Assembly (NCBI RefSeq): GCF_000003605.2
Contig: NW_003126883.1
Location: forward strand, 501,928-529,711
Direction of reading: 5' to 3'
Source of the DNA: Saccoglossus kowalevskii
Lineage: Eukaryota > Hemichordata > Enteropneusta > Harrimaniidae
DNA: 27,784 nucleotides
Shown: piece by piece, positions 4,719 through 26,822 of the stretch
Numbering within the stretch: position 1 is the stretch's first letter
Layout of the letters: the number at the start of each line of letters is the position of its first letter
Notes under the pieces: model-generated
What the model saw: the letters and a program-made list of their open reading frames with translations, nothing else
The model's database searches: none
Told to the model about the DNA's origin: nothing
Program-made: the position numbers and the translations under genes

Positions 4719-7700
4719 CTGTAAATGAATAAAATATGAATAATCAATTTCTATTTACTTTGGATGGTTGGGTGTTTTTACTCATATTCCCACAATGAAA
4801 TCCATCTCTTTGATTATTTATTGCCATTGAATGAAGTGCATTTATTTTACTCCAGTGTGCAAAGCACACAACATGAGTGAGCAGTTTTCTTTTCTGTGTG
4901 TACATATGTATGTATAAAATGTGGTATATACCACCTATAATATTTGTGTTGATAAACATTGATTTCTTCCCACAATCCAATTTGCTTTTCTGAAAGAAAT
5001 TGTGAGTATGAGTTTTGACCTGGGCGCAGCACGCACTTATTACCACCAGTGACACCTTCCAATCAATAAAGAAATTACATAGTTAAAGCTTAGTAACGCC
5101 TCAGTTTGTACAGTCAAGGGTGTCATCTTTGTTCATACAAGTCACATATCTTGTGAAACGACCACCACCCTTTAATTACCTAATTTGCATAATAATTAGT
5201 ACATTTTCAGTTTTTTCATAGATATCTGAAGATATCATCTATTAATTGAATCTTATTAAATTGAAGCTAATATTAAATTTTGAATTAGTTTTAAATACAC
5301 CTCCAATAGGGGTTCTTTATGAGCTTTTTTCAATTTTTTTTTGTGTAGTTGGACAACTTCAAATTCCACATACTGTTATACAATATCATAAACCATGTGC
5401 GTATTTCTTGCAAATTGTTTTTGCTAATTCAAGAGCATTTACCTGGACAAAAGCGTTCTTCAAACAAACCTGTTTAGGCAAGCAAGTAAAAATAAGTGTG
5501 TGAAGCTTGCATACAATAGATAGTTTTACTGAAATATTATAGCAAGTAAAATCGATGGACATGATGTTGATAGAGGAAATTTGCAAATAAAGCAGTGGTT
5601 TAAATTTAAACTAGCTTTTGCAAAATACAAAAATACCTGGTTGAAGTTATTCTTTCTAAACATTCCACTTTTACATCATATCCACATTCCTCAAGAATTT
5701 CTTGTTTTGCCAGCTGTTCTATACTGCCCGATTTATCAACCAGTCCAGCACAGAGTTCAAAGGTCATTCCAAGACTACCTGGAAACTTAGTTGTGTCAAT
5801 TCTACCATTTTCTACTTCAACCCTAGCAGCATACACAGCTAAGAAGTTGAATAAGTATAATTAGCTTGACATATTGACATTTCAAAAGCGAAAAAAAAAG
5901 GCTGTGTAGTCTAAGAAATAGTGCATTATCTAATATACTGACTTTAAAATGTCATCAATATTATGTTATGAGAATGATGTTTGAAAAGAGTTATACATGG
6001 GGAATTATTGCAAAAAGATACAGCTGATAGGGTTTTAAATATTTATTTAATTTGTCTGAAACAGTGCATACATTTACTCTGATATATTTTTTATGATAAG
6101 GTTAACACAATATTGCAATATTTTTATTATTGATGAGTTATTAAATTTATTTTCTCACATATTGTTGAGAATGCATATCATTGACGAATATTTAACTACT
6201 GTAAAATTTTCATGATTCAGTAAAAGAGAACCTGTTTACAATATGTACCCAAAATCATGTGACATATTTACAATTAAAATGCACAACTGCACATAAAATA
6301 TTTTTAACAATGTCATAATTTTATTATTACACGCCTTCCGGGTGTCAGATTTTCAAATGTGAACAGTTTCATCTTAATAATGTTAACTTTTGCAAACTTT
6401 CATACTTTTATTACATTTTTACATTGAGACTTTGAAGTTGGTAGAATGTAAAGTACAAAAAGGAACAAAAAAACAGCATAGTGTATATAAGCCTTACCTG
6501 GTCTAAATTGTTTTACCATTATGAATACTTTTCTTGTAACATTAAATATCAAAATAATAACACTAAAAAAGAAAAACATTGTTCAGGTAATTATTTTCGT
6601 CATCCTCATTTTCACTGCTATATATTAAATAATTTATAGTACACAGCAGTATATGCACCAACGTAGTGTAGCCAAAGGAAACATTAAAATGGAAATACAA
6701 TAAATATTTGTTACAAACCATACTAACCATATCTTTCTGATGCAGGGAGCCATTTTAGCAGTATTTGCCTTCGACTAGGAAATAAGGATGCCCCTATAAA
6801 TAATCTGGAGTATGTTTACATCACTGCCTTGAGAGCCCTGGGTCGCCTCAAGCCTTCCAAGTTTTCGGTCGACTGCTATGCATTTTCGCAACTGAAACAA
6901 CTGGGCAGTTTTTACCACCCCTGCTCACATTGCCAGGGAAGCTTCATGATGATTATTAACAAAATTATTTATAGCTAATTTTCTCAAACATAAAATGCAA
7001 CAGACCAATGCAATCATGTAACACTACTTTCTTCTTCCTTCGAGAGCCCTTTCATTGACATGAGTAACTACGACCACATCACTTGTGTCACCCAAAGGCA
7101 GCAACGCAAACGCACTCCTGGAGAATTTAACCAACTTTTTGACTACCTAGGTCACTTTTTCAAAGCCAATGTGGTTGACAGTGTCACAATCTCTTTCACA
7201 GTTTAAAATCTTGATCCTTGATTTCGATAACTGGTCCTTTTTGTGGCATATTCATTGCTAATAAATATTCAAAAAAGAGAAACAAACGTGCATTTGCACA
7301 AAAAATTCCACTTGTCAGGGAAGCATAAATCAGATCCAAGATGAAAAGCTGCCTTCTCTTTGCTCATCAGTTTTCAATCATACTACTCATTAGCAAAAAA
7401 AACCACATGGTGCTTTCCTTAGACATGTTGTGGTAATGTCGCATCAGACCAAGATAACAGAAAAAAAAAATTGTTACAAATTTATTTTTAAAAGATTGTA
7501 TGAAACAATGAAAGATGTCTATTTTGAAAAAAAAGAAACATGGGAAAGCTTAGAATAATGCATAAGGCCTTCACAATTAGAAACTTGGAGGTAAATTTGA
7601 AAGAAAAAAATCTGCACAAGGAATTGTACGAAAAAAAAATCTTACAAATGTTTATTTGAAGATCCAGCTCAAAGCTATGTGCAGAAAAAAATAACATTCC

Positions 7701-9230
7701 TTCACCCAAAATTGTTAATGATCAACACTTAATTCAAGTGTATTAATAAATAGTACTCGATAATGGAACAACTTTTACACTCAAAGTACTATTTACAAAT
7801 CATGTTTATTTTTTTTAGTTTTTGGCACAAGTATGGGTCACAGGTGAGGTTTCATTTTTTACAATGTTACTGTATATCTACAACGAAACTTATGTACGAG
7901 TATTGTAAAGTAGTAATATAACAATTTTATACGAGAAACTTTTATATACAGTCTAGGGACTGTGACATTACCGGTAATAAAACTTTGTATCTAATATCAC
8001 CCCGAGACAAGGGTTACGCACACAAAAGACAATCCATCACACTATAAACCAAGAATATGACTCTCCCCTGGCACTTATCTTGTCTATAAAGCCACTTATG
8101 TGGGAGTAACCAGTGACCCATGCCTAAATTGGAATTCTCATATAGAAAAAATTGTGAAAACCATTAGTCCCAAAGTGAGCATTATATCTTGCATTCGTCA
8201 CTATGTTCCCAGTTCAATTCTCATCCCACTTTACAACACACTTATTCTCCCACACTTAATGTACTGTATTGAAATCTGGGGAAACACATACCCAACACTT
8301 CTTGAACCAGTTCTGCTCTTACAAAAAAAAGTTGTACGCCTTATCACATTCTGCTCCTCTTTTTATCCAATTATGCATACTTGATATTCACAAACTTTGT
8401 AAATTACAAACCTGTCTATTTATCTTCGACAACAGATATGCACATAGCCTCAATAAGTATGTTAATGATTACCCAGATTGCTATCCCACAAGGTATCTAG
8501 CAGTAACTTGTCAATTCCTGTTGCTCAACTTACAGTTTCACAACATAATTTTAAATTTGCTGCAGTAAAACACTGGAATTCACTTCCAGACTCCCTCAAA
8601 AACATCAACAACAGAAACAAATTTAAATATGAAATGAAACATTATTTGCTTTGTTAAATTCCTCGATTACGTCCCACTTCCTTTCCTTTACTAGTAAATT
8701 GTCAATTTCTACTTGACAGTCTGGGCCATGGACTGGACTAGTCTATAAGGACTATTTCCATGGTCCACACCAGAATTACTACTATTGTATTTTGTTTATA
8801 AGTTTTGTAATAATGGTCATTCTGGTGAAATAAATAAATAAACTTCCGTACATGGCATAGTCATCATGGTTGGTTGGATGAATTTCTTTTTACATTTTCT
8901 CCAGTCTGTTCTAAAGTAGTATGCGAAATTCTTTAGGATAGTTTCAAGTTCAAATGTCCCGCCTTTTCACATGCGAAAGCTGTTAATATATTTAGAAATA
9001 GGGATTCACGTTTGACTCACCTGTTATACACCTTCATATAGTCCCACGTCTTATCGATTCCATCCTGTCGATAAACAAAACAAACGCACAATAAAATAAA
9101 TGTTTGAATATGTTATAAACAATAAAATCACGTATCCGTCACGAACCTGTTTATAATGAATTCTGAACGGTCTGATATATTTGGAATCTGTACACGGAAG
9201 TACACGAACATCAGCAATGTTGTCTGCCAT
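4484..9230 (-). CDS. NUDT14: UDP-sugar pyrophosphatase, NUDT14-type Nudix hydrolase (five coding exons, 209 aa)
   Basis: Exons on the minus strand: 9230-9147, 9064-9021, 6562-6498, 5838-5637 and 4718-4484. They sum to 630 bp, every junction has GT and AG, and all phases agree, giving 209 residues plus stop (human NUDT14 is about 222). Family landmarks are all present: YIRPFRIHYKQ near the N-terminus, KTWDYMK, VKQFRPAVYAARVE, the FELCAGLVD lead-in, the Nudix helix around residues 96-118 ending ILEECGY, then a GSLQTLYYVEVTDEM segment and a GGGLTEEGEMIEV loop. The family hydrolyses UDP-glucose and related nucleotide sugars to UMP and sugar-1-phosphate with Mg2+, in the cytosol, as a dimer. The metal-binding glutamates E111, E114 and E115 are present. 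The usual Arg of the Nudix box is Gln here (Q110); as I recall, human NUDT14 has Lys. The start MADN fits the family length. An in-frame upstream ATG at 9320 would add 30 residues, but a GTAAGT donor there suggests 5'UTR splicing. Confidence 0.92.
4921..5175 (+). mobile_element. Miniature element, copy 2 (diverged), inside NUDT14-like intron 4 and upstream of exon 5
   Basis: It shares ordered blocks with copy 1: GTGTTGATAAACATTGATTT then CCCACAATCCAAT, CACCTTCCAATCA, then AGTAACGCCTCAGTTTGTAC, then GTCATCTTTGTTCATAC. The right end is CACCCTTTAA (TTAA at 5172-5175). The left terminal repeat is not recognisable; a 14-bp perfect palindrome GTGGTATATACCAC (4921-4934) lies at about the expected edge. 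The stretch between the first and second blocks differs from copy 1. Confidence 0.5.
5637..5838 (-). CDS. NUDT14: NUDT14-like exon 4 (Nudix box)
   Basis: The acceptor is TTCTTAG and the donor GTATTT. The exon is 202 bp and encodes about residues 66-131, including FPGSLGMTFELCAGLVD and the Nudix helix QEILEECGY. It begins and ends inside codons whose phases match exons 3 and 5. Confidence 0.9.
6498..6562 (-). CDS. NUDT14: NUDT14-like exon 3 (65 bp)
   Basis: A long T-tract acceptor (TTTTTTTAG) is followed by 65 bp and the donor GTAAGG. With the split codons it reads S-VIILIFNVTRKVFIMVKQFRP-A. This is the beta-strand block containing the family VKQFRP motif that must join exons 2 and 4. The intron on its 5' side is 2,458 bp and carries two insertions. 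Confidence 0.88.
6727..7206 (+). pseudogene. Broken, GC-richer coding fragment in NUDT14-like intron 2; possible Sec23-like trunk-domain remnant
   Basis: One frame on the plus strand (6745-7203) reads as protein-like sequence with only two internal stops, both in an AT-rich insert at about 6960-7030. The two flanking blocks are in the same frame. Block one contains LEYVYITALRALGRLKPS, FSVDCYAFSQLKQLGSFY and then HPCSHCQGSFMMI. Block two starts SSFESPFIDMSNYDHITC and continues through QQRKRTPGEFNQLFDYLGHF. The order V-D-x-Y-A, L-x-Q-x-G, a Cys, G-x-F-M, then S-F-x-S resembles the stretch of Sec23 proteins around VDIYA...GYMVM...DSF, from memory. The last part does not clearly fit Sec23. It is not part of NUDT14, which reads on the other strand. 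It could be a captured gene piece or a dead processed copy. Confidence 0.3.
7985..8842 (+). mobile_element. 5'-truncated LINE (non-LTR retrotransposon) with (AAAT)n tail, in NUDT14-like intron 2
   Basis: From about 8085 the plus strand encodes a typical ORF2 C-terminal section. It reads TYVGVTSDPCLNWNSHI, IRHYVPSSILIPLYNTLILP, LMYCIEIWG, LLLQKKVVRLITF. After a frameshift near 8340-8390 come LCKLQTCLFIFDNRY and then HWNSLPDSLKNINNRNKFKY. This order (LGV-D-LNW-HI, then P-L-Y-C-WG, then WN-LP-F) is standard for CR1/L2/Jockey-like reverse transcriptases. The copy ends in three AAAT repeats at 8828-8842, a usual LINE tail. Weak reading frames with stops extend left to about 7985. It is 5'-truncated and frameshifted, hence inactive, and lies antisense to the host gene. 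Confidence 0.75.
9021..9064 (-). CDS. NUDT14: NUDT14-like exon 2 (44 bp)
   Basis: The acceptor is TCGACAG and the donor GTGAG. The exon encodes DGIDKTWDYMKVYN plus two bases of the next codon. The intron before it is only 82 bp (9065-9146). It is too short to be noticed as an open frame, but it aligns with the conserved K-x-W-D-x-M-K block of the family. Confidence 0.85.
9147..9230 (-). CDS. NUDT14: NUDT14-like exon 1 (residues 1-28)
   Basis: The exon runs from the start ATG at 9230-9228 to CAG, followed by the donor GTTCGT at 9146. It ends on a codon boundary and encodes the N-terminal strand ending IRPFRIHYKQ. Confidence 0.85.
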
Positions 9231-9484
9231 TTCACTGTCGATGACGTAAAAGTTGGTTGGTTGAATATTTTTTGCGACAATATGCAAGAAGAAACACGAC
9301 TTACGGTAGCCTCGTTCCATAGAGGTTTATGCACTTAACGGAAGAGTAGAGCAGTTATAGAAACTTACATTATTTACTCTGGATATCTAAAAAAATGGTT
9401 TTATAAATAGAGTTTTGTTAGGATGTGAAATAATAAAAAGTGCTTATTGTTTTAATTTTCGAGTAGGAAAACATATTTTATATA
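9231..9484. promoter_or_regulatory. Probable bidirectional promoter region between NUDT14-like and C6orf120-like genes
   Basis: The divergent first exons leave a short interval here. ACGGAAG (ETS-like) occurs near 9338-9344, and again as ACGGAAGT inside NUDT14-like exon 1 (about 9194-9201). A TATA-like TATATATATAT run at about 9479-9489 could serve the rightward gene. The exact start sites cannot be read from sequence. Confidence 0.4.
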
Positions 9485-9489
9485 TATAT

Positions 9490-9620
9490 GGGATCGAGGA
9501 TGAAATGCGGAAGTTGCCCAGCTCGGAGAATATAACCTGTTACTCTGATTTGAGATGTTTGACAAATATCGCGCGTAATTCTTGTTCATACAATCAGAAC
9601 GGCCAGAACCTGAACCCGAG
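9490..9620 (+). other. Probable non-coding first exon of the C6orf120-like gene
   Basis: The exon is inferred from a strong donor, GAG then GTAAGA, at 9621. It pairs with the acceptor TTTTTCAACAG ending at 10151, giving a 531-bp intron. It contains no in-frame coding continuation into the main protein: the frame crossing the junction stops just past the main ATG. The left edge is uncertain. Confidence 0.45.
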
Positions 9621-10176
9621 GTAAGACTGTGTTTTATAAAACTAACTCCACGATAAAAAATACAGGCATCAGCCATAGCTTATGCTCTGATTCCCTGGAC
9701 GATAGATTTACGCTTGACCCAACAAAACAATGTGTGAAAAGGGACGCAGACTACTTTCACGGAACTCACAGCATCTCTCTATTGCTTCAAATATCATTCA
9801 CAATCGCGAGTCGTGTCGACGCATTCACAAGAAGGAATACAAAATTAAATATATAAATGGAAGTTTCTCAGTCATTTTCTTTTAAAGATATGAATCCTTT
9901 TCATGAAAATACTTTATTATCACTGTAAAGTTTGACAATTTTTTTTGATATTATTGTTAAAATACAAAAATTGTCAACAGAAAATTTCAGAAAAATAACA
10001 AATCATTATTCCCATTTTAAAATCGTTTCTATACCAATATATGCTTGTGGTAGGAGTTACTCTCAGAGGTCTACTTCCATGTTCTTTGCAGAATATTTAT
10101 CTCTGAATATTATCAATATATAAACTTTATTATCGTTTCATTTTTCAACAGATCTCAATATCCTGGTACATATCCA

Positions 10177-10191
10177 ATGTTACTATGGTAA
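10177..10191 (+). promoter_or_regulatory. Four-codon upstream ORF overlapping the main start
   Basis: ATG TTA CTA TGG TAA begins 8 bases before the C6orf120-like ATG at 10185 and terminates across it. Ribosomes that start here would end 4 bases past the main start codon, so it could dampen translation or lead to reinitiation. Confidence 0.4.
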
Positions 10192-10679
10192 CCTGCATGT
10201 TATTCAACAGCTTGTATTTGTACATCTGCCTTATTCTGATTCTTATTGGTCCGCTGTGTTACGGACAACAGTTAATACATGGCTTTTCTGGCAGGATTGG
10301 CGCCGGCAACTATACCTACTATAGATTGGCAAAAGAAGGTGCCATGGCCCTTGTACTAGATACCTTAGAAGGGGATGCTGATATTTATATCTCAAGTTTA
10401 ACACTGGCTCCATCTTTTGAAGAATATGAACTGCAATCAGCAACATGTGGTCAAGACATAGTGGAAATACCTATGGAAATGTCTCGTCCAATTGGCGTTG
10501 CTGTTTATGGCCATGTTTCGTGTATGGAGTCTTCGTATCGGTTAAGTGTATTGGTGGATAAAGTGGATTCTTCCGAACTGTCTAATTCCAAAAATCAGCA
10601 CTATGAAACAGGAGAAGAGAGTCTCCTTTGGACTATTTTTGTAAATATTCTTAAAATCCTATTTGATGTATTAGTATGA
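10185..10679 (+). CDS. C6orf120: UPF0669 family secreted protein, C6orf120 homologue (164 aa)
   Basis: A complete single-exon coding sequence. Residues 1-27 form a signal peptide (LYICLILILIGPLCYG core). The conserved family body follows: GRIGAGNYTYYRL (36-48), then a GDADIYIS motif (63-70), then PSFEEYELQSATCGQD (76-91) and RPIGVAVYGH (101-110). After a polar linker, the C-terminus is hydrophobic: EESLLWTIFVNILKILF (144-160). Human C6orf120, as I recall it, has the same blocks in the same order and the same SATCG motif. Cys88 and Cys113 may pair. N42-Y-T is a possible N-glycosylation site. The molecular role is not established; the human protein is reported as secreted and linked to T-cell apoptosis. 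The start was chosen because it gives a full signal peptide. The coding part lies wholly in one exon, after a probable 5'UTR intron. Confidence 0.9.
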   Translation: MVTCMLFNSLYLYICLILILIGPLCYGQQLIHGFSGRIGAGNYTYYRLAKEGAMALVLDTLEGDADIYISSLTLAPSFEEYELQSATCGQDIVEIPMEMSRPIGVAVYGHVSCMESSYRLSVLVDKVDSSELSNSKNQHYETGEESLLWTIFVNILKILFDVLV

Positions 10680-10786: not shown

Positions 10787-13700
10787 TACATTATAAATGT
10801 TGACAGCATTAAGTGTTCTCACGATGGTAGTGTGATCACAGTGTTATGCGCCACAAAAAGTGTTCGCTTTTTGTGATTTTGTGATGATCAATTTAGTTTC
10901 TTTGTATGGCAAATTCAACCATAGTCCATCTATTCTGGATTTTGCCAAGTGCCACAGTCATTGTGTAACACACGTGTGAACACACAACACTTTTCACATT
11001 GATTGTATATGTTGCATGGTACCCACATTGAACATGACAGGGTATAGGTACAGTGGCACTTCAACTCCTAGACAATCAGAACACATTTTGCAATTTGATT
11101 TTGAATTGACAATCGTCAATCCACTACAGCAGGAGAACACCTAACGCATGGAAACATCTTATCAAAATGGTATAACAATTCACATGAGATAGTATGATAC
11201 GTTTGATTTGCTGAATTTTAGGAGTTGTAATTTTTGGATAACGAATTGTTTCACAGTATTAATTAAGCAAATTGCTAATCTACTCAATTTACACTGTATG
11301 TGATTTTCAGTTTTGATTATGACTACCGGTATGTTTATTTTTATAAATGAGTAATAAATGCTTTAGGTGATTGCACCCAAAAATGTAATTGAAAAATATA
11401 TGAATTTGTCATTAATTTTCTAATGAACCACATTAATATTGTGGGACTCCCATGGTGCATTTCATTAGAGACAACTAAGCTTATGGAATTGTTCAATTGT
11501 TAGGTACTAATCAATTTCTGGATATTACATCATGGTGGTTTAGCCATGTTCCCAAATTAAGGCTCATAGTGCCGTATGCTGCCATAACATATTTGTTTGG
11601 CCTCAAAAGTGGCATTAATATTGTAGCATGTATTGTAGTCCAAGTTCAGATGAGTTAAAAAAAAAACAGAACATATTTCACCTCTGTGTGTTGATCCGTC
11701 CACACCTGTAATCTCAGACATGCCTGGGCCACTTACATTCAAACTTGACATACACATCTTACATTATACAACTGTATCATATATGCACATGCGCATTTAT
11801 TTCATGGTACAATTCAAGATTGCTGAGCAACTGCCATTTTAATGCTAAAAAAATCATCAAAATCAATCATTTGTGCCCTTCTGGAACTTGATCTCATTTA
11901 ATTCAAACTTAGTATGTCCATTGAACATATTGGGTCATTGATCCATGCCCTTTTTTACCAGATTGAATGTAAAGTGGCTCACTGGTGACAAATGCTGTTC
12001 TAGGGCCATATCTAATGTCTTGATCACATTCAAACTTTGCAAGTACATTATACATCAGGTCACACATGTTTCATAATTAAATTCAAGATGACCATTGTTT
12101 AGCTAATCTACCCTTTTCTTTTGGATGTCTAGTGTTAGACAACACTTTTAAAAAATATCAATGAAGACTGTATCATTTTCAATAATATATAAGTGAATCC
12201 TGTTAAGTGTTGGATGCCAGAATAAATAACACATACCTCTCCTAGTAACCAGTAACTATGCAAAACTATTTGTATGTAACAGTGGTGAAAAATACACAGT
12301 TTAATCCATTTCATATACTGTATTTTCTTTAAACAAGTACTGTTAATCCATTTTTTTTGTGAGGAGATAATATGCTGTTACAGTTAAACTCTATGGTAAT
12401 AATTTGTGCATGGCTCTGAGTAGACTGATATGTGCTGTTAAATTTTGTCATACAAATATACGCTAATTACGATATATTCAAATACTGTTTCTGCAGTTTA
12501 GTTTAGAAGAATAAAAGCAATTGTTGCGGTTAATCATATTTTATTTACGCTACAGTATTTGCTTTATTGGTAGTTCATAAGTAAACAACAGAGGTGTGTC
12601 TATAATCAAAATAAATACAATATTTGGTCTAATGGTGAATAACAACATGTGTGACATATTTACCACTCAGTCTGAATATTCACAGTATCAATCACTGTTA
12701 TACAGTACATACATGTCACATACCAGTTCCAAAATCACTGATAAGGGTCTAAAATAGCTAGACTGATTGATCAAAACGAAGAAAATCTATGAATACATAA
12801 ATTCTTAATTTTATGCTTTATTGTTTTAATGTTATTCTTTAAAAATGAACTGTACTGGGGTAGGTACTCCTGAGTATGATTACACTGATATTATGTCATA
12901 CTTGGAAATGAATTTTGGGACTACCTTGTATCAATTTGTATCAATTATTTTGGTCTTTTGAAAGTTTTGTAATAACAATGTATCATCGGAAGTATTTTTT
13001 ATACAGGGTATTAATTGTATGTGTATGTAATTGGGTTACTTAGTTTTACAGTTTTACCTGAAATGCAGTGTATTTGAGTTGACCATTAATTTCATCAAAA
13101 AACAATTCAATCCATCAATTCATTAGCACGATGCAGTTATCTGGTTCATCAGGGAGGCTAATTATGTTTGATCTGAACAGCTGTCTGTTCACACTGCAGT
13201 ATAATTTAAACATTCTTTCTGAACTAGCAAACACTTATAGCAGGGGAGAATGATGTGATATCAGATAGGGACTATAAGGCCTATCCGTTCAATGTGTTGT
13301 GTATCCTCTAATTGTTTGCCTGTTGATCTTTGTAAAGAATAAATACAAAGAAACAAAGCAATGGAACAAGAAACTTCCACAGCATAGACTGACTTGTAAT
13401 ATTGGTCACTATATTTTCCTCACATATTGAACTATGTACTTCTGAAAAGTGTATTGATCAACCTTAATTAAGGAAAACCACTATTGAGTCATTCTTTTAT
13501 AAAAACACTTTATGTAATTTTTAGTTTTCAGTTGACTGTTTCGAAAAATAAATGAAAGGGTATAACCCTTACTTGATTTATAATTCATGTTTTGACTTTT
13601 TTAATCCCTGTTTCAGGTGCAGCCATGAGCCTGAAAGGCGGACTATTAATTCTTATATCAATTTTTCGTCTGTGACGTCTCTAACATTTTCTCAGAAATT

Positions 13701-14756
13701 CTGCAGCAGATATTGTTGAAACTTGGCAGGTTGATGAACAAGTCTCTGCCGAAAATGCAATTTTTTTTTCCAGATCTGAAAATCCTAAGTGGGTCTTTTT
13801 CAGGATTTTCATCAAAAACTACCTCTCCCAACATCACTGAGAGAACAACTGAGCATGCTCAGAATAAATAATTAGCTTAGATTGTAATGCTACTAAGGGT
13901 TTTTAGTGATGTCATGACCTTGATCTGATATAATTAGTTGATTGCACAATAATTACAACTTTGTTTTTCTATATCACTCAATAATAGAAAATGTCAACAA
14001 ACATCTCTGAAGGTTTGTATATCAAATCAGTTTTGAATCACTCATCTCTATGGTGGCTTGTGAAGTGAAAATGTCAGAAATTGACAAAATTATCAATGGC
14101 TCTAATAAGCTACCGTACATCTCAATTAATTTGCATTGAATTAGCAATTAATTACACAGGAGCACATTCAGTTTATGTCTTGTGGTGCAGAACTGCAAAC
14201 TTAATGCTGTCTGACTGTATATGTACAAATATTCAAAACCGGTGATTATATGGTAAGATATATGTTATTGCGCCCTCAATGTCTGATAATGCATCTACGT
14301 TTGAACGTTTTTGGTGGCGCTCTCTTTGATAATCTTACACACTGCACAACGTCTGCATGTAACCACATTGATACAAGAGAACTGGTGATGGTTGTAGAAC
14401 CATAACTACCTCAGCTCAAAGATTGTTATGTAATACATGGGAAAGTGAAGGGAAATGTATTGTAATGTTACCTCTGTGTAATTTACAATATATCTGAATT
14501 AACCTTCACTGTGAAGGACAATATGGGAATTGACTTAACTGACTGGTAGAAGCAAGGCTGGTCAAATTTTGCGAAATAGTAGTTAGAATTTCCAGATACC
14601 GTGACGCAATCGACACATTGTGGGATATCAAAATAGGGATGATAAACAGCAAGCGATATTTTCAGAAATGTAGTTGGAATTGAAGCAAAGGAGTGGCCTA
14701 TTAATCCATGAAACATACTCACACATATCCGTACATATCATCCTGTCTTATTGTGT
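10787..14756. other. Long AT-rich non-coding stretch, no gene recognised
   Basis: I found no protein-like frame on either strand. The segment at about 13610-13960 (GTGCAGCCATGAGCCTG to about GTGATGTCATGACC) is somewhat less AT-rich than its flanks and may be an old dispersed repeat, but I have no second copy in the window to prove it. The rest looks like ordinary intergenic DNA. Confidence 0.5.
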
Positions 14757-15271
14757 GTGGGTGTCGCATACGACTTATTTACCACTTCCGTGTCACTGAG
14801 AATGTTCTAGAACCGTACTGTGTCTGGGTGGAATATTCTAGATTTGTTTAGAAACTGGTTGAATAGGTAATGGAACACTGTAGGAGGCAATAGAAGGTAA
14901 TGGAACATTCTAGAAATTTGTAGTAAGTTCCAGACTCATTATGTATGCTGATGTAATGGTCTATTTATAGACAGTGTGGGTATATACAGGAGAGTTGTTC
15001 AGCACTGAGATCAGATCGGAGATCTCGTTGAATTGTATTGGAGTTTAAGTATCTAGTCATTGGAGTAGTGGAGTTTTACCGCGTTATTGTACTTGATGTT
15101 TGCAGAGTATAATAATACCAGTACCAGTTGAACCTCATCTGTTGGCTCCGTGTTCGTATTTTATCATCGCCGCCAGGGAAGTCTTTCTGTTACTGTTGCC
15201 ATTTTGGTATTTGAACCACCACACCTGTACTATACCAATTACGGTAATATTACGTTGCGTGTGACAGTGGG
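14757..15271 (+). mobile_element. Solo LTR of an LTR retrotransposon (505 bp, GTGGG target-site duplication)
   Basis: The element runs from TGTCGCATACG (14762) to TTGCGTGTGACA (ends 15266). The termini are TGTC...GACA, with a short imperfect inverted repeat TGTCGCA/TGTGACA. The 5-bp GTGGG occurs immediately before (14757-14761) and immediately after (15267-15271), as expected for integrase-made duplications. Inside are a TATTTATA box (14962-14969) and upstream repeats: AGGTAATGGAACA occurs at 14865-14877 and again at 14895-14907, 30 bp apart. No primer-binding site, internal region or second LTR follows, so it is a recombined solo LTR. The superfamily cannot be decided from the LTR alone. The intact duplication suggests a fairly recent insertion. 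Confidence 0.75.
14800..14915 (+). promoter_or_regulatory. Heat-shock elements in the solo LTR (two perfect, one near-perfect)
   Basis: The pattern GAAnnTTCnnGAA, the three-unit binding site of heat-shock factor HSF1, occurs exactly at 14800-14812 (GAATGTTCTAGAA) and 14903-14915 (GAACATTCTAGAA). A third copy at 14831-14843 has two perfect units and a degenerate third (GAATATTCTAGAT). All lie upstream of the TATA-like box at 14962, in the U3 part of the LTR. Confidence 0.6.
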
Positions 15272-15992
15272 CAAAGCTGTCATATACACAATCGGAAAAA
15301 TGTGTTATTACTGTAAATAATTATGAGCAATAAAAACTTAAATTTAGAAAAACTATGAACAATTAATAAGAAAAATATGTGATTTGCTGTACAGTTTCCA
15401 GAAAAATATGAAGTGCATACGAGTCGTCAAAACGTACAGTTTGGTGACAGTTTGAAATGATACCAAGATTTAACAATTCCATGAGAACATCGTATTAACC
15501 CCTCATTCACATTGTGCAAATACAAACAAGACATTAAACCTTCTTGATAGTAACAAGTAAGTGTTGTATAAATCCGAATGAAAAGTCCGGAGTCACGGCG
15601 AATACTTCTAGCGAGTCACCCCTCTAAAAACGTCATAACTGTGTCAGTGGCATTGAACTTTGCTCTTCCATAAAGCAGTAGTTTCCATCTTCAAATAATC
15701 AAAATAACCTTGATACCCCGGCGAAGCATGTCTATTGTTACACAACGACTGTCCAAAGGGATTTTCGTCTTCTCAATTTATCAAGATAAACGTCCCAAGG
15801 TTGTTTTGTTTACTAGAAGGACATGTCTTTTGGCAGCATTTCTTGTATTAATTTCCATTACACAAAAAAATAGCAAATTAGCAAAGGATTTTTATGGCGG
15901 GGGGGGTCCAAACTTTAAAATAAAATATAAACTATATTAATGATTTTTTATATTATACAAAAACAAATTGAATATTTTTTTCAACGGGGGGG
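15272..15992. other. Non-coding DNA up to the assembly gap, with poly-G tracts
   Basis: No gene recognised. Two G homopolymers occur: G8 at 15899-15906 and G7 at 15986-15992, the second ending exactly at the gap. Confidence 0.5.
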
Positions 15993-16199
15993 NNNNNNNN
16001 NNNNNNNNNNNNNNNNNNNNNNNNNNNNNNNNNNNNNNNNNNNNNNNNNNNNNNNNNNNNNNNNNNNNNNNNNNNNNNNNNNNNNNNNNNNNNNNNNNNN
16101 NNNNNNNNNNNNNNNNNNNNNNNNNNNNNNNNNNNNNNNNNNNNNNNNNNNNNNNNNNNNNNNNNNNNNNNNNNNNNNNNNNNNNNNNNNNNNNNNNNN
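15993..16199. other. Assembly gap (207 N)
   Basis: A run of 207 undetermined bases. Any reading frame drawn across it is meaningless. Confidence 0.99.
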
Positions 16200-16659
16200 A
16201 AAATTATATCAACACTACTTGATCAAATATTCAAAATGTGCCATTATACATGGAAATCTTCTATACATGTACACGTAGAGTAATATTCTGGTATTGTTTC
16301 GAGAAATGTAAACATTTATCACAGAATAAATGATGTTCTCGTTGTTGTTTTCAATATGTCTTATTTCAGAAGATGTAGTATAACATTTCTTACATTAAAG
16401 TCTTACAATAATTCTTTTTTTCTTGGGATTGAGAAATCAAAAATATCGAAAAAAAAACGATTGTTTCAACTGGCATGTAATTGTATTTGAAAAACAAATC
16501 TCCAATATACAGAAGTGTTGGAGAGAAAACGTTACTGTTACATTTGACATAACTTCACATTTCAATGTCGAGGAATTCAGTCCAGAAAACCCGTAACCCC
16601 ACATTTGTATGAATTGCACGTGCGAATTATAAGTTCCACACATAGCTAGCTGTACTGCT

Positions 16660-16728
16660 AAACGATAGAGTTATTCTGCAAAGTGTCGTAACCATGGTGA
16701 CGCAGCAATGATTCGGATGATATTTGAA
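16660..16728 (+). repeat. Diverged direct repeat, left copy
   Basis: About 65 bp containing GTCGTAACCATGGTGAC followed by GATTCGGATGATAT. It aligns with the copy at 17405-17466 and includes an RFX X-box-like core (GTAACCATGGTGAC, 16688-16701). Confidence 0.45.
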
Positions 16729-17404
16729 GTCATGAAAGTAAAATATTTTAATTGATTATCGCCAGTTTATTACAAGTTCTGGACAAGTTATGAAACTGTA
16801 TTTCAGATTTCTTACGCGATCAAGATAGCTTGGTTATTCGGTGAATATGTGTTTTAATATTTGATCTTGAACTTCTTCAGAATTTCAATTCAGATTGCAT
16901 AGTTATAATTCAGCTCAATAAATACAATTTAAGTATTCCCCCTTGATAATGACAAGATATGCTATTACAGGTGGTTCCATTACCAATGTTACGTTTTCCA
17001 TCCTTTAACAACTTAAAAAGTTTCACACATACCCTCTATTACTAGTCTGACACAATATTCACTCCTGGTCCAGTCAACTGTCACGCAATTGTGACATTTA
17101 CAGAGACTGATTGCACCGATGCGCATCGCGGGTAAATGAACTATAGGTTCGTTCATCTTAGGTTGTACAACACTTGAACCAAATTTGTTAATTTTGCGAT
17201 AACGGCTGACGGGTCATTAATATTGCAAGGGTGTCCAAGTTATAATCTGACAAATTATTGTTTCATCTGATAAAAATAATGATACATATGTGCTTCCCAA
17301 ATTGTCTTTGTGGGGGGAACAAATTCTGCCTCGAAGTGGGTGCCAAATATATGCCCTTTCTTCAACATAGATACAGCAAAAAGATAGTCAGACAGGGTTG
17401 TGCA

Positions 17405-17466
17405 GTTTATTCGGGAAAAAGTCGTAACCATAGTGACAAATGTGATTTGAATGATATCTCACAATG
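17405..17466 (+). repeat. Diverged direct repeat, right copy
   Basis: Contains GTCGTAACCATAGTGAC and GATTTGAATGATAT, matching the left copy about 735 bp upstream in the same orientation. Sequence between the two copies is not obviously related to any element I know. Confidence 0.45.
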
Positions 17467-20400
17467 AATAGACCCCGGGGATAGACGGAATTTTGTGAAG
17501 TTATAGTGACTATGACTGGTAGTTTGAAAGATCCTGAACCGTAAGATAGCGAACCTCGTTTTTGGCATTGTGGTTCTTGATATTTTTCGGGTATCTTGTT
17601 TAATTTGCATTTGTTCGTGCTTTTCGCTCCATCTACAATTGAACATATTGTAAATGTGCAGTACGTTTTTACATTGCCTACATGATACACAGGTATTCTC
17701 TGCTGTTTTTGGTTTCAGTCAATTATAATATATATTATCAGTTGCATTTAGCGCCCACCAAAAATGCTCGTCCGTCAATTTTTAAATAATGTATGTTAAA
17801 ACAACAATAGCGTATTTGAATTAAATTGAGGTAGTTATCTGCATGTAAGCTTACTTGGAACTTTTTCGTTTTTGTGAAATTTAATTTTAGTCAGTATACT
17901 AAGGGAAACGGGTTCATTAGCGCCACCAACTCGTAAGGGCTCATCCCAGCGAGGAAGGTTCACGAGGCAATTCTAAACATATCGACATCTACAACAATTC
18001 AAGCGGATTAATAGTTTAGCAGAATTTCAAGTTAAGGTGACTTTAGTGAAAATTTGGTGGAATTATGTTGTTAATTATAACATGTTTAACTAAGGAGTTA
18101 ACAAGTCTAACTACGATATAGACTTTCCGTTTTCGACATTGTGAAATTCTTTCGTTTTTATGCAGACAAGTAACGGAAAGAAAACAGAAAGTCTTTATCG
18201 CATTGTTGTCGGTGAATTTGATGACGTGGTCGAAAAAATGCCGAGGAAACACTAAAATCCGATTGTATCCATTTGCATAGTAAACGTCAACAATCTACCC
18301 AGTTGTCCGGTGGAAATAATTTCCAACTTCTGCGCATGGCCGAGATCGATACCACCGGCCAAAATTTAAGAACATACATTCATCTTACATTCAAGCTGTA
18401 GTCGTGCCACTCCTTGGACCTACGTTTGTAAAGAACTTGGTGCGAGCCCTCATTAAATCAGCCTCAAAGAAAGGAAACCAAAGCTCTTTTTATTTTCAGT
18501 GTTTTTAGACATTCAGTCACCGTTCAGTGCAATGAACTCTAAATATACACAGGACAGCCTAATGGGCAAGGATACAAACAGAGGTCAACTGGGGTCATTC
18601 ACAATGCAGTTGTCGCCTTTCGTTCTACTAGCAGTCGGTTGTCAAGATAATAAAGTTATGGGAGCTATATGATTTAAATTAGAGTCTATTCACGATGACC
18701 AGTGACCGACTATAATAGGGGTATGTTTTAATCCAGGAAAATATTTCATGCAGCAAACTTACTTTACGAATACTGTGCAAGACAAAACGGGGCTTGAAAT
18801 GGCGTCGCATCAGCGAAAATATTGAGCACTATTAATAAATAAAGACATAATATAACGACTCCTAACATAAATAATAATAAAGCCAGTAAAGGATTGACGT
18901 GATTTGATGTGTTTATTATTGGGTATTATGATTTGGTATGCTCAAATACGTATTAAAATGCTTTGACGTTATGTGTTCATATCTCGGATCATGACATCAT
19001 CCCATACACAGACGCGTCCGTCGTCTATAAACCTCCGACTCTAACTATCAACTAAACAGTCTCCGTCACCGATAAACTTAGCTTAACTATCAACTAAACA
19101 AAACAATCTAGTACAGTGTGTAAAATAAAACTTACAGAAAAACAAAGAGAATTAATAGTCATCATTAGAAGGTCACTGTGAAGATTGTATAATAAATTAT
19201 ATCGACCAACTCAGATCACATAACGATGGAAATACAATCGATTGTAATATGAAAATGAAAACATGAGCTTATTCCAAAATATAACTGTAATAATGAAATC
19301 AATATTGCTCAGTTTAATTTAAAATGTTATTCATCATAATTCAGCAGTTGAAATTGTTCAAGTTTTAATCAAATTAAATTTAAATTTACATTGTGTATTT
19401 TGACTATTTAAAGAAAAACAGAACACATTTCCAACAGTTCTTCTATTTAATATAGCTACAGTCATGTGCAGCTGTCATCGGGTCACGTGCGCTTATTTAC
19501 ACAATCATGCTAGTGACTCACTATCTGTGGAATGCATATGCCAATCTTTTGAGAGAAATTAGCCACGGTACTATCAATCTGAGGTTTCAGGCCACGCAAC
19601 CCAATAAAGGCACACCCCCAAATGTTAGACGCCCAGTGTATGTAATTACAGCCCCTTAATTCTTCAAAGACATCATGGTTCGTGTTTTACATGTGATTGT
19701 CGAAAAACATTATCCATATTTACGAGCTAGTATGTAAATATTTCTGGTTCACATTTGTTATTAATAAATCATATATCATAGAGTGTATGGTGATCGGACG
19801 GACATGGCACAGTAATCATGTCGATACTATCGAGTTTGGTTACACGTTCTTTCATTGAAAACACGTATAGGATTGCGTACAGAGTGTCATACAAGTACTA
19901 TGTTCTGAAAGAGACCATTCTACTTGAGAGTGGCTTTTGCCATACCGGCTTACTCTATACGTACCTCGCAGTAACAGATCTAACATCATATATAAGCGCT
20001 CTTCGCCTGACTAGAACTTAGGAATGGTCTTTACATTTAAAAGTTTGGCTGTGTATGCTGAGTGCATTTCATTTAGTCGACATTTATGTATATTCGTCAC
20101 CCGGATTTCTTTACCGGTCTATTGCATTTGACTGCAATAGAACTAGTACTTTTAATGACCCCCGTGTGTTACAATGCATTCTCGAAGCAAGTGCTGTCTC
20201 CTTGACAACTGGTAACTATTGAGCTTTGAATCTGTTTAAATAGATGTAAATACACGTAATCGTGGTCATGAATAAAACTGGTGGAATTACAACATCTATT
20301 CCAGATATTATCTGGGTAGAGAAAACAGCGGTACATTGTAAACGCGGTGTCGGATCGTAAATCAATAGAGGTTAAAGGTGAACTTAAATAAAGAGTATTC

Positions 20401-20619
20401 ATTAATCATAAATACTTATGTTGCTGTGAGATTAATCACTTTTTACTGGCATGTAGTGCACTACTTGTACGACTGTTGTAATATAATACACCAATTTATA
20501 AAAACGACGTGAATGACTTACACCTGGTCTTGCACCACTCTGTTGAAGACGTTTCATCATTACCGAGTCTATTAAACGACATCACCTGTCGTGCAGTCAA
20601 TATACATACTACATGATGT
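17467..20619. other. Non-coding stretch, no gene recognised
   Basis: No convincing exons. One short reading frame from the ATG at about 18339 (MAEIDTTGQNL...) is only about 21 codons. A 17-bp direct repeat TAACTATCAACTAAACA occurs at 19042-19058 and 19084-19100. The right end holds the 3' flank of the minus-strand coiled-coil gene. Confidence 0.45.
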
Positions 20620-22140
20620 CTAAAAAAGTTTTTTAAATTTGCCTCCTTTCTTTTTCTTCCCCGATTGCTCATCTTCTGCTGTAGGCTGGTTCACGTTCTG
20701 CTGCGACGACGCTTTGAGGGCAGCTGTCTTTACCTCCTCCGTTAGTGACTTTATTTTACTTTCAGCGGTAGAAAGTTTGGATTTCATACTAGTTATTTCT
20801 TTCTCAAGTTCTTTAATTTTGTTGTCTTTCTCCCCCACTGTAGCTGTTAGTTTGTCATTTTTAATTGAGGCCTCCGATTTTGATGTTGCCGCTTCTTTCT
20901 CAAGTTGTTTGATTTTGTCTTCTTTCTCTGATAGAGTCTTTGAGACGGTCTGTGACCGAGTCACTTGCAGTTGCAGATCCGCTTTTTCGCGCTCTAATCG
21001 TTTCAATTTCTCATCCTTCGCTGTAACGTCTTTGGCGATTTCTTTGTTTTTAGTAGATTCCAATTTAAGAGCGTTATTCTCTCGTTCCAGTTTCTTGATT
21101 GTCTCATCCCTTTCTACCAAACTTTTCGAAATGTCTTCCATTCTCGACAATTTGTCACGAAGAGAGGCGTTTTCGATTTCCATTTCTTTACTTTTATCAC
21201 CACTTTCTGAAAACTGTTTCATCATATTTTCCATGTCGGCGCGGATATTTTCAGTCATTTTTTCTTGAATCTCAGTAGCGTTTTTCTTGACGGTGTCCAT
21301 TTTTGTTGACATGTCTTGAACCATTTTACTCAATACACCTTCAATGTTTTGTGTAGCCGATTTGTTATCTAACATAATGCCTTCTAGTTTATCCTCCAAT
21401 AAAATCATTTTTTCCATGATTTCCAAATCTCTGTTCTCCTGAATTTCTTTATCTTTCTCCCCATTGACCATGGCAGCTGGTGGAGTATCCGGTTGCCTGG
21501 TTACCTCTTCTAATATTTTGAAATTCTGCTCTTCTAATTGATTAATACGCTCGTGTAAAGATGTTAGTTTTTCAATCGTGTCCAAACTGGAAAGACTGTT
21601 GTCGGTGGCCACGGAGTCCATACGTTCTTCTAAAACTCCAAGTTTGTCCAACACGGAAGAAGACGACGAACGACTGGCATTAAACTGGTCTTCATCATAC
21701 CTCATCGATGTAATGAGCTCTTCGGACCCGTCACTATCGGGCGTTTTGAGGTCGCGAACCTCTGGACTTCTAATTTTCGGCTCTTTCAGTCGAGTCGAAC
21801 TTGAATGCGAGGGTGACGATAATGGAGACGATTTAATTTTTCGTTCCGTGAACTGTGCCGACGTCGACGTATATTTGTGCCCTGCTGTTTGTGCTGACGT
21901 TTTCTTGGGGGAATGTTTGTTACTGCTTGGCATGGGTATTCCTGAACGCCGCATTACTGGCAATTTACTACCCGGTGATGGCGATGGCTTGCTGTACGCT
22001 ATCCGGCTGACACTCTCATGACCCCTTGTATTTGACATCATTGTATTGTCATACTGTGGGTATTGGTCAATCTCGTGACCGCCATCGTCGTAGTAATATT
22101 CGTCATATCCGTAGTCTTGTGTATCTGCGTTGTAGGCCAT
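20620..22140 (-). CDS. Uncharacterised 506-aa coiled-coil protein with SxIP-like motifs
   Basis: I do not recognise the family. It is a single uninterrupted exon, from an ATG in good context (GAAAATGG) to TAG at 20622-20620. Residues 1-31 are rich in Tyr and Asp (DYGYDEYYYDDGG). Residues about 45-130 are basic and Ser/Pro-rich and include SKLP (58-61) and RRSGIPMPSS (SxIP at 66-69), the type of short motif by which microtubule plus-end proteins bind EB1. Acidic and Ser-rich spacers lead to helical segments (165-215, 235-310), then a long coiled coil (about 317-475). Within the coiled coil, I-K-x-L-E-(R/K)-E recurs at residues 348, 379, 410 and 442, a 31-residue spacing. The C-terminus is a basic tail ending KKKKGGKFKKLF. 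A cytoskeletal or scaffold role is an inference only. The composition argues strongly for a real gene. Confidence 0.85.
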   Translation of the reverse strand: MAYNADTQDYGYDEYYYDDGGHEIDQYPQYDNTMMSNTRGHESVSRIAYSKPSPSPGSKLPVMRRSGIPMPSSNKHSPKKTSAQTAGHKYTSTSAQFTERKIKSSPLSSPSHSSSTRLKEPKIRSPEVRDLKTPDSDGSEELITSMRYDEDQFNASRSSSSSVLDKLGVLEERMDSVATDNSLSSLDTIEKLTSLHERINQLEEQNFKILEEVTRQPDTPPAAMVNGEKDKEIQENRDLEIMEKMILLEDKLEGIMLDNKSATQNIEGVLSKMVQDMSTKMDTVKKNATEIQEKMTENIRADMENMMKQFSESGDKSKEMEIENASLRDKLSRMEDISKSLVERDETIKKLERENNALKLESTKNKEIAKDVTAKDEKLKRLEREKADLQLQVTRSQTVSKTLSEKEDKIKQLEKEAATSKSEASIKNDKLTATVGEKDNKIKELEKEITSMKSKLSTAESKIKSLTEEVKTAALKASSQQNVNQPTAEDEQSGKKKKGGKFKKLF

Positions 22141-22262
22141 TTTCCTGACAGTATATCCAATAAAACGTAGTTGTTGTAGTGGCTACTTCGATTGATTCGG
22201 TTCACTGATTTAACGACAGTGTCTAATTCTGACGTATGTATCCAGCAGCGCTAGAGTGTTTA

Positions 22263-23007
22263 CTGCAAAAAGAACAGCGAGAAATACGTTGATAGCGGCA
22301 CACATACACACAAAGTTAATATTAATATAGAGTCACACATCCCATGTATAACTAGTCACAACAAGTCCAAGGTCTTGAGCTGATGGACACTTGCAATGTG
22401 ACAGTAAAAGACTGAATAAACATTCACATTAAACACGAGTAGACACAAGTATCAGATTGAACTTCGTGTTTTGGCGTCAGTGACATATTTACATGTATAA
22501 CGACACTCTACAATAAATTCAGTAAGTTGGTCATATACCGCGTGGCAGCAGACAACTGCGTTCAAACCAACACACTGGACGGAAAGCATTTAGTATGCAT
22601 TGTATATTTTAAACCACTCACTTTGTATTGCTTTTTTTCCACCACAGTAATATGGGTGTGACTGGACGAGTTCGCATTAAATAAGCTGAATGGATGTCAA
22701 GTTGTGCATTCTACTAGGTCAAAATATAGCACAGTTTTGTACATAAATCCACAAAATACAGCATAGTCATGGATTGTGTCTGTTAATCACCCGAGGGGAT
22801 AATATCCCATGTGTGATCGGCGACCTTCTCACGGAATTAATTAAACGTATTCAAGGTATCAGTGTGCTGGACGTTACAAGTACATTGTAGTCCAATCGTG
22901 GAGTCCGGCCAAAATCGTATACAATGGGCTCAATTGAAAGCGACGTTTGAAAGCAAACTGACACTGTAACACCGTTGGAGTCGATTGTTGAACCCAAAAC
23001 TATTTAC
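22263..23007 (-). other. Probable 5'UTR intron of the coiled-coil gene
   Basis: On the minus strand a strong acceptor (TTCTTTTTGCAG, AG at 22264-22263) lies 122 bases upstream of the ATG. A donor (AAG before GTAAATA, GT at 23007-23006) lies 745 bp further up. A TATA-like TTATAAG at about 23158-23164 could place transcription start near 23130, giving a short non-coding exon 1 at about 23008-23130. Confidence 0.4.
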
Positions 23008-23130
23008 CTTACTGGCTGAATCCTATATTAGTCATAAAACAAACGAGGGAACTTCTTCAGCGGCGAGTCGACAGAGTCCTGTGCAGGATATTCAAGTTCT
23101 CGCCGTTTGATCTTCAAGGGTAGTGCCTCC

Positions 23131-25450: not shown

Positions 25451-25655
25451 CCAACGTAACAGTAACGGATTTCATTACTGCTTATACATATGAAAACGGA
25501 TAACTATAGATATAGATGCTGATAATTACAAGCACGTTGATTGTTACCGAACATTTCGCCTGAGACGTCTGGTATTATTTCGATATTATTTCAAAAATAG
25601 ATATCTTCATTTACCATTAATTGTACATACATGTAACAAGCTGACCAATGACGTC

Positions 25656-26723: not shown

Positions 26724-26822
26724 CTAAAATCAAGGCACATTGTAGTCTGATAGTTTGACATGGTCGGCAATAGCTATTGCGCCATCACCGACGGATTCAT
26801 TTGAATGTAAACTACGTCAGGA

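What the first reader, a model, noticed from the sequence alone, without database searches (positions are those of the whole stretch)
14757..15271. Solo LTR carrying a heat-shock enhancer
A 505-bp solo LTR with a perfect GTGGG duplication has two exact GAAnnTTCnnGAA heat-shock elements and a third with two intact units, all within 116 bp upstream of a TATA-like box. The elements and duplication are seen in the sequence. That HSF1 binds such sites is established, and the Arabidopsis element ONSEN is a known heat-driven LTR retrotransposon. That this family is heat-activated in its animal host, or donates heat response to neighbouring genes, is inference.
Basis: partly seen in the sequence, partly recalled or inferred. 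Interest (0 to 1): 0.72.

Follow-up and report, generated by a model that had tools for sequence, protein, structure and literature searches.

The report
LTR family carrying heat-shock promoter elements
This is one of many copies of a retrotransposon's control sequence in an animal genome; most copies examined carry two perfect heat-shock-factor binding sites, so heat may switch the element on, but that has not been measured here.

Summary
Bases 14762-15266 are a 505-bp solo LTR between GTGGG duplications, with exact heat-shock elements (HSEs) at 14800 and 14903 and a two-unit one at 14831. All 40 scored best hits, window included, are 96-100% identical. Of 41 copies read, 27 have perfect 5-bp duplications and 38 keep both exact HSEs. 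In a sample found by the primer-site junction, 15 of 23 family LTRs keep both, 7 one, 1 none. GAANNTTCTAGAA occurs 1164 times against 141 for the reversed pattern; 70 of the first 100 listed form the LTR's pair, so one family may supply 16-20% of all 5009 exact three-unit HSEs (extrapolated). One host HSP70 gene has a near-identical site upstream. Against: constraint on the sites is weakly and inconsistently supported, HSE2 is broken in 10 of 23, no canonical HSF1 was found, and heat induction is untested. Best reading: an ONSEN-like heat-responsive promoter in an animal, probably Ty3/gypsy-type, family. It is a new member of a known kind.

The parts
14757..14761 (.). Left copy of the 5-bp target-site duplication GTGGG
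   Evidence: 27 of 41 family copies read have perfect 5-bp duplications
14762..15266 (+). Solo LTR, 505 bp, TGTC...GACA
14800..14812 (+). HSE1, GAATGTTCTAGAA, exact three-unit heat-shock element
   Evidence: letter for letter in 30 of 30 other copies; exact units in 17 of 23 primer-site-linked LTRs; lies in the longest invariant run, 14791-14813, of 30 copies
14831..14843 (+). HSE2, GAATATTCTAGAT, two intact units
   Evidence: third unit reads GAT, TAT or (one copy) GGT in 30 other copies; first two units kept in 13 of 23 primer-site-linked LTRs
14873..14885 (+). Degenerate HSE-like site GAACACTGTAGGA in the first copy of a repeat 30 bp apart
   Evidence: reads GAACACTGTAGAA in L086, L092 and L097
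14903..14915 (+). HSE3, GAACATTCTAGAA, exact three-unit heat-shock element
   Evidence: letter for letter in 25 of 30 other copies as aligned; exact units in 20 of 23 primer-site-linked LTRs
14962..14969 (+). TATTTATA, TATA-like box
   Evidence: same in 29 of 30 other copies
14981..14986 (+). TATATA, likely TATA box
   Evidence: same in 29 of 30 other copies; role inferred
15011..15017 (+). TCAGATC, initiator-like; A at 15013 is 32 bp from the TATA box start
   Evidence: same in 29 of 30 other copies; role inferred
15111..15116 (+). AATAAT, possible weak polyadenylation signal; no AATAAA or ATTAAA in the LTR
   Evidence: role inferred
15267..15271 (.). Right copy of the 5-bp target-site duplication GTGGG

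Best explanation
This is a solo LTR, presumably left by recombination between the two LTRs of a young, multi-copy, probably Ty3/gypsy-type retrotransposon (SCAN-type Gag) in an animal genome. Its U3 is built like a heat-shock promoter: two exact three-unit HSEs and a weaker one lie 110-213 bp upstream of an initiator-like A that follows a TATA box. Inferred steps: on stress the host's HSF trimer binds HSE1 and HSE3, recruits polymerase to the LTR, and the element is transcribed and copied. Each insertion, and each solo LTR left behind, adds high-affinity HSF sites to the genome. Shown: LTR, duplications, family, retained sites, genome-wide site counts. Not shown: HSF binding, heat induction, effect on host genes.
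For: Two exact sites this close are very improbable by chance. 38 of 41 copies keep both, 3 keep one. Of 23 primer-site-linked family LTRs, sampled without regard to the HSEs, 15 keep both, 7 one, 1 none. In those 23, substitutions at the 27 HSE unit bases are 5 of 528 cells against 247 of 9505 at other non-CpG bases (random draw P 0.036; 18 of 390 slid masks as low). GAANNTTCTAGAA is 8 times commoner than its reversed control (1164 against 141); 70 of the first 100 sites listed form the LTR's pair, and 4 of 4 such pairs fetched for a check align to the LTR. One host HSP70 gene has GAATGTTCTGGAA, 12 of 13 letters like HSE1, 336 bp before its exon-1 match. The one HSF-type domain found has the SFVRQ recognition helix that PMC11059408 gives for HSF1, HSF2 and HSF4. 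LTRs of another type with the same primer-site junction have no GAANNTTC or TTCNNGAA in the stretch read (L087, L089).
Against: No expression or binding data. The family is young (mean pairwise identity 0.975 over 31 copies), so retention is largely expected. In 30 best hits HSE unit bases vary as much as other non-CpG bases (12 of 810 against 193 of 12960, P 0.60); likewise in 40 (16 of 1078 against 220 of 17090, P 0.68); pooling 63 copies gives P 0.34 for all 27 bases, and P 0.017 arises only after leaving out the variable unit of HSE2, a choice made after seeing the data. Deletions in the 23 primer-site-linked LTRs fall on HSE unit bases more than elsewhere (93 of 621 against 431 of 9936 cells). 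No canonical HSF1 was found; the single HSF-type domain is closest to HSF5. Of three HSP70 upstream regions examined, only one has an exact three-unit site. [quoted passage not shown] thaliana has functional HREs or heat response.
Confidence: 0.6

Rival explanations
1. The HSEs are inherited passengers: an ancestral active copy had them, the family is too young for them to decay, and the LTR is not heat-driven today because it is silenced or its promoter uses other sites.
For: High identity of copies; no excess conservation in 30 or 40 best hits or in the pooled 27-base test; HSE2 and its surroundings often deleted.
Against: Lower substitution at HSE unit bases in the 23 primer-site-linked LTRs; HSE1 lies in the longest invariant run of 30 copies; a copy only about 89% identical still carries the pair (L107), though it was picked for having the pair.
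Confidence: 0.22
2. The sites serve HSF-dependent germline or developmental expression without heat: an HSF5-, HSF1- or HSF2-type factor drives the LTR in germ cells, where a retrotransposon must be expressed to be inherited.
For: The only HSF-type domain found is HSF5-like. PMC11059408 describes mouse HSF5 as male-germ-cell specific under non-stress conditions (title and abstract start, passages).
Against: The same paper says mouse HSF5 prefers a single GAA triplet, not the three-unit HSE, so a three-unit array would not be needed. Absence of HSF1 may be an assembly, masking or search gap.
Confidence: 0.12
3. Some solo LTRs have become host heat-response enhancers, wiring neighbouring genes into the heat response as Helitrons do in Caenorhabditis.
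For: The family supplies an estimated 16-20% of the genome's exact three-unit HSEs (extrapolated). One solo LTR (L019) lies about 18 kb upstream of an HSP70 gene of mitochondrial type (type recalled) on the same strand.
Against: The window copy lies beyond the 3' ends of the gene and open frame on its two sides. One LTR within 18 kb of one of three HSP70 genes is expected by chance at roughly 0.1 (own estimate from about 600 candidates in 572 Mb).
Confidence: 0.1
4. The GAANNTTCTAGAA motif is read by another factor, or is a structural palindrome with no HSF role.
For: TTCTAGAA is a palindrome and the sites overlap AGAACA- and CATTC-like half-sites (sequence; the factor names TEAD and glucocorticoid receptor are recalled).
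Against: Exact 5-bp periodicity of three alternating units in two sites, and a near-identical site upstream of a host HSP70 gene.
Confidence: 0.05

Closest known systems
ONSEN / COPIA78 of Brassicaceae (PMC3907296: passages and part 1 of 2 of the discussion; PMC5059998: abstract and one results section)
   Same: HSEs in the LTR of a retrotransposon; in ONSEN the strong site arose by duplication of a proto-site, and here HSE3 lies in one copy of a duplicated short unit.
   Different: Plant Ty1/copia, in A. thaliana mostly one four-unit site plus a gap site, no CG in the promoter, and measured heat response; here an animal, SCAN-Gag element with two three-unit sites, 15 CpG in the LTR and no heat data.
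Bovine leukemia virus LTR (PMC10236774, passages)
   Same: An LTR of an animal retroelement with an HSE through which HSF1 activates transcription in reporter assays, per that review.
   Different: Exogenous retrovirus, one short two-unit site; here a genomic family with two three-unit sites.
Drosophila copia (as discussed in PMC3907296)
   Same: Animal LTR retrotransposon with heat-shock consensus sequences.
   Different: According to that discussion copia lacks at least three more nGAAn copies required for high-affinity HSF binding; here two complete three-unit sites.
HSE-bearing Helitrons of Caenorhabditis (PMC6927752: abstract start and passages; PMC8896005: passages)
   Same: A mobile element carries a substantial share of a genome's HSEs.
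   Different: DNA transposon; HSF-1 binding and heat-response effects on genes are reported there, nothing of the kind is measured here.
Dictyostelium DIRS-1 (passage and reference titles in PMC2685390)
   Same: Heat-shock promoter in terminal repeats.
   Different: DIRS-type element with inverted terminal repeats; tyrosine recombinase and lack of target duplication are recalled.
Heat-inducible LTR elements of C. elegans (PMC4714518, passages)
   Same: A subset of animal LTR retrotransposons is heat inducible.
   Different: Normally prevented by HRDE-1; the terms heat shock element and HSF-1 do not occur in the main text.
TCN3 and TCN12 of Cryptococcus (PMC12810828, passages)
   Same: Putative HSEs in the LTR.
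   Different: Fungal; temperature-dependent mobilisation was measured there.
Gmr1-type Ty3/gypsy elements (PMC4131045, passages)
   Same: SCAN domain in the Gag-side frame.
   Different: Reverse transcriptase and integrase not seen here (interior reads N).

Membership tests
LTR retrotransposon (solo LTR) | TG...CA ends and short direct target duplication | tested here: met
   27 of 41 copies read have perfect 5-bp duplications, 27 different sequences; one of them (L022, TATAT) lies in an AT repeat and is uninformative
LTR retrotransposon (solo LTR) | Other copies flank an interior with primer-binding site and polypurine tract | tested here: met
   primer-site junction in 3 and purine-rich tract in 3 of the 41; 29 primer-site junctions genome-wide, reversed control 0; 23 of 25 such LTRs fetched are this family
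LTR retrotransposon (solo LTR) | No interior at this locus | tested here: met
   duplication directly on both sides; no Pfam family at E 0.01 in six frames nearby
Ty3/gypsy, Gmr1-type | SCAN-like capsid and CCHC knuckle in Gag | tested here: inconclusive
   one element (L048): SCAN 33.6 bits over cut-off 27; CCHC 14.8 bits, under its cut-off of 20.8. SCAN found in over half of Gmr elements only, in frogs, per PMC4131045
Ty3/gypsy, Gmr1-type | Integrase placed before reverse transcriptase (recalled) | not tested
   much of the interior reads N in L048, L049, L050; not pursued
Heat-responsive LTR retrotransposon (ONSEN-like) | At least one contiguous three-unit nGAAn site in the LTR, kept across copies | tested here: met
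   38 of 41 copies have two, 3 have one; of 23 primer-site-linked LTRs 15 two, 7 one, 1 none
Heat-responsive LTR retrotransposon (ONSEN-like) | Sites more conserved than the rest of the LTR | tested here: inconclusive
   for 27 unit bases: P 0.60 in 30 copies; P 0.036 in 23, 0.68 in 40, 0.34 in 63 pooled
Heat-responsive LTR retrotransposon (ONSEN-like) | Transcription rises on heat and depends on HSF | not testable with these tools
   no expression or binding data held
Heat-responsive LTR retrotransposon (ONSEN-like) | Host has a canonical HSF1 | tested here: inconclusive
   one HSF-type domain found, closest to HSF5; an HSF4 query finds only that locus

The most novel reading that the evidence does not exclude
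A single animal LTR retrotransposon family has become a leading source, perhaps a fifth, of the exact three-unit heat-shock elements in its host genome, and some of its many solo LTRs now act as heat-inducible promoters or enhancers, so that past heat-driven bursts have rewired the host's heat response.
Probability: 0.25. Interest if true: 0.8.

Novelty: new member of a known kind. Interest (0 to 1): 0.57.

Why it matters
Among the papers seen here, the mechanism of a heat-driven LTR retrotransposon is worked out best in plants (ONSEN). An animal family with two exact HSEs per LTR and many dispersed solo copies would give a natural experiment on whether stress-responsive transposons seed stress-responsive genes. 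Comparing heat induction of genes near LTRs that have two, one or no sites is directly testable in one RNA-seq experiment.

Tried and rejected
Similar DNA in phages, plasmids, IMG/VR and GTDB contigs: nothing related. Phages and plasmids gave no match. Two viral patterns gave no hits; a third hit one contig that holds a 20-bp match only. A genome contigs gap pattern gave none. A 17-mer hit 15 genome stretches and 1 viral stretch (L002-L017), and the LTR aligned to none of these 16 at E 1e-5. Rfam and tRNA scans of the window: nothing. Pfam on the window (six ORFs; six frames of 1-9900, 11500-14761, 15267-19000 and 18000-27784) gave only C6ORF120/UPF0669 above its cut-off. DNA folding of the LTR: ordinary, z -0.47. 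HSF5 as the obvious driver was set aside because mouse HSF5 prefers a single GAA (PMC11059408). Literature: ten searches of open-access papers, mostly seen as titles and abstract starts. Besides copia, C. elegans elements and the bovine leukemia virus LTR named above, I noticed no paper in those listings on an HSE-bearing LTR family of an animal; the listings are capped and subscription papers are missing.

Full report
What is there. The LTR at 14762-15266 is 505 bp, begins TGTCGCAT, ends GTGTGACA and is flanked by GTGGG on both sides. Exact three-unit sites are at 14800 and 14903, and a site with 8 of 9 unit bases at 14831; one search also lists an overlapping 8-of-9 site at 14908 and several sites with two mismatches in 14700-15300. 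All three main sites have TA between the second and third unit. Start-to-start spacings are 31 and 72 bp, both close to whole helical turns (own arithmetic; may be chance). A repeat 30 bp apart, AGGTAATGGAACACTGTAG at 14865 and AGGTAATGGAACATTCTAG at 14895, shows HSE3 lying in one copy of a duplicated unit whose other copy is a degenerate site. In ONSEN the strong site is reported to have arisen by duplication of a proto-site (PMC5059998, abstract and one section); the likeness is a lead, not a test.

Is it chance? In 2000 simulated windows for each of Markov orders 1, 2 and 3, two exact sites this close occurred 0, 1 and 0 times, never with a third. In 100 dinucleotide shuffles of the window, 4 had two or more exact sites anywhere. 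The window had been read for striking things, so this is a check after the fact; the family evidence matters more.

Family. A search of the host genome (572,110,611 bases, 4830 contigs) with the LTR gave 597 candidates, of which the tool scored 40. All 40 covered at least 501 of 505 bases at 96-100% identity, the window's own copy included. I read those 40 plus a second LTR in one locus. Of 41, 27 have perfect 5-bp duplications, 3 join a primer-site-like sequence, 3 join a purine-rich tract, 7 have no duplication, and 1 has N in the flank. The 27 duplications are all different, so these are separate insertions; one lies in an AT repeat and says little. 38 of 41 carry two exact three-unit sites and 3 carry one. 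Mean pairwise identity of the first 31 is 0.975. The two LTRs of single elements differ at 5 of 488 (L025) and 10 of 441 (L050) aligned bases, gaps not counted.

A less biased sample. Best hits to a copy with HSEs are biased to copies with HSEs. I therefore searched for the junction between LTR end and primer site: 29 places with up to 2 mismatches, reversed control 0. Four were already in hand (L025, L042, L053 and the 5' LTR in L050: two, two, one and one exact sites); the other 25 were fetched. Two (L087, L089) have a different LTR sharing only the last bases and the primer site, with no GAANNTTC or TTCNNGAA in the stretch read. Of the other 23, 15 have two exact sites, 7 have one and 1 has none. 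By position, HSE1 is exact in 17 of 23 and HSE3 in 20 of 23; the first two units of HSE2 are kept in 13 of 23 and no copy has GAA as its third unit.

Constraint. In those 23, substitutions at the 27 unit bases are 5 of 528 cells against 247 of 9505 at other non-CpG bases (random draw P 0.036; 18 of 390 slid masks are as low). In 30 best hits it is 12 of 810 against 193 of 12960 (P 0.60), and in all 40 it is 16 of 1078 against 220 of 17090 (P 0.68). Pooled over 63, the 27 bases give P 0.34. Leaving out the third unit of HSE2, which I decided after seeing it vary, gives P 0.035 in the 23, 0.106 in the 40, and 0.017 pooled (8 of 1442 against 453 of 25641; 1 of 390 slid masks). Deletions in the 23 fall more often on unit bases (93 of 621) than on other non-CpG bases (431 of 9936). 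HSE1 lies inside the longest invariant run, 14791-14813, in the first 30 copies. Selection on HSE1 and HSE3 is possible but not demonstrated; HSE2 looks dispensable.

Share of the genome's HSEs. GAANNTTCTAGAA occurs 612 + 552 = 1164 times; the reversed pattern 66 + 75 = 141 times. In the first 100 places listed, 70 form 35 same-strand pairs of GAATGTTCTAGAA then GAACATTCTAGAA, 62-105 bp apart; 16 more are single sites of those two kinds; 14 are others. I fetched four of the 35 pairs and all four align to the LTR, at 87-97% over their aligned pieces; of two single sites fetched, one is in an LTR (C13) and one is not (C53). GAANNTTCNNGAA occurs 2516 + 2493 = 5009 times, reversed control 914 + 915 = 1829. 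If the first 100 are typical, about 815 to 1000 sites, or 16-20% of all exact three-unit HSEs, lie in this one family. In the first 100 places, 18 are in such pairs by my own count. The reversed control differs in dinucleotide content and is crude.

The host. It is an animal by my reading: a C6ORF120/UPF0669 gene (10107-10679 +, E 1.1e-42) lies in the window (the family's animal distribution is recalled). HSP70 matches lie on C449, C1346, C3049 and, weakly, C1729 and C3372. The C1346 gene (AVGIDLGTTYSCVGV) has GAATGTTCTGGAA 336 bp before its exon-1 match. No exact three-unit site was found in the 1500 bp before the matched exon in L066 (C3049) or L074 (C449; that match starts at profile position 18, so it may not be the first exon). 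One HSF-type DNA-binding domain was found (C2986, in a 453-residue open frame; 1 match from 2 candidates), closest to HSF5 among solved structures (68.9 bits, against 53 for HSF4 and 45.6 for HSF1). An HSF4 query finds only that locus. HSF1 may be split over exons, in a gap or masked. PMC11059408 (passages) says HSF1, HSF2 and HSF4 have SFVRQ in the recognition helix and mouse HSF5 has SFIRQ; the host's domain has SFVRQ.

What kind of element. The sequence after 5' LTRs, TCTGGGGGCTCGTCCGGGAA, resembles a tRNA-Pro primer site (recalled, not tested). An open frame just inside one element has a SCAN domain (33.6 bits, cut-off 27) and a sub-threshold CCHC knuckle. In frogs the SCAN domain was reported in Gmr elements only, a Ty3/gypsy type (PMC4131045, passages). 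Much of the interior reads N and was left alone, so the class rests on one domain in one element.

Mechanism. Anatomy supports a promoter: TATATA at 14981, initiator-like TCAGATC with A at 15013, HSEs starting 110, 182 and 213 bp upstream of that A. By analogy with ONSEN, where HSFA2 binds the LTR and transcription depends on HSFs (PMC3907296, passages and part of the discussion), and with the bovine leukemia virus LTR, which HSF1 activates through an HSE in reporter assays (PMC10236774, passages), the host HSF would bind on heat and drive the element. That step is inference. For this copy, the UPF0669 gene and the 520-residue frame converge on the LTR from 4.1 and 5.4 kb away, so an effect on their promoters is not expected; a sense transcript from the LTR would run toward the 3' end of the minus-strand frame.

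Verdict. The heat-driven reading is the best one but unmeasured. It belongs with ONSEN-like heat-responsive LTRs in how it probably works; membership needs heat data. The estimated genome-wide share of exact HSEs is the most interesting addition.

Noticed in passing
L025 / L051 (C2039): A short element: LTR, about 411 bp of interior (with a 50-base N run) carrying primer site and purine tract, then LTR; a possible miniature or internally deleted derivative of this family.
   Followed up: partly
L087 (C4432), L089 (C4770): LTRs of another type with the same primer-site junction; L089 has 47-bp tandem repeats upstream and neither has an HSE core in the stretch read.
   Followed up: partly
L019 (C3049:292343-292847) and C3049:266776-273941: A solo LTR with both HSEs about 18 kb upstream, same strand, of an HSP70 gene of mitochondrial type (type recalled); chance about 0.1 by own estimate.
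   Followed up: no
L062 (C2986:30528-30842): The only HSF-type DNA-binding domain found in the genome is HSF5-like, in a single 453-residue frame; no canonical HSF1 turned up.
   Followed up: partly
C46:274710-274758: Three GAATATTCATGAA sites in a row at 18-bp spacing, a small HSE-like tandem array.
   Followed up: no
window 1244-1480, 4942-4991, 26189-26499: Pieces of another dispersed repeat, about 83-89% alike, in both orientations.
   Followed up: no
window 26866-26962: An imperfect palindrome of about 100 bp, 78% self-complementary.
   Followed up: no
window 20620-22182, minus strand: A 520-residue open frame with weak coiled-coil-type matches, ending GKKKKGGKFKKLF; no Pfam family reached its cut-off.
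   Followed up: partly
window 8061-8384, plus strand: An open frame that looks like the end of a non-LTR reverse transcriptase protein (recalled resemblance); Pfam finds nothing.
   Followed up: no
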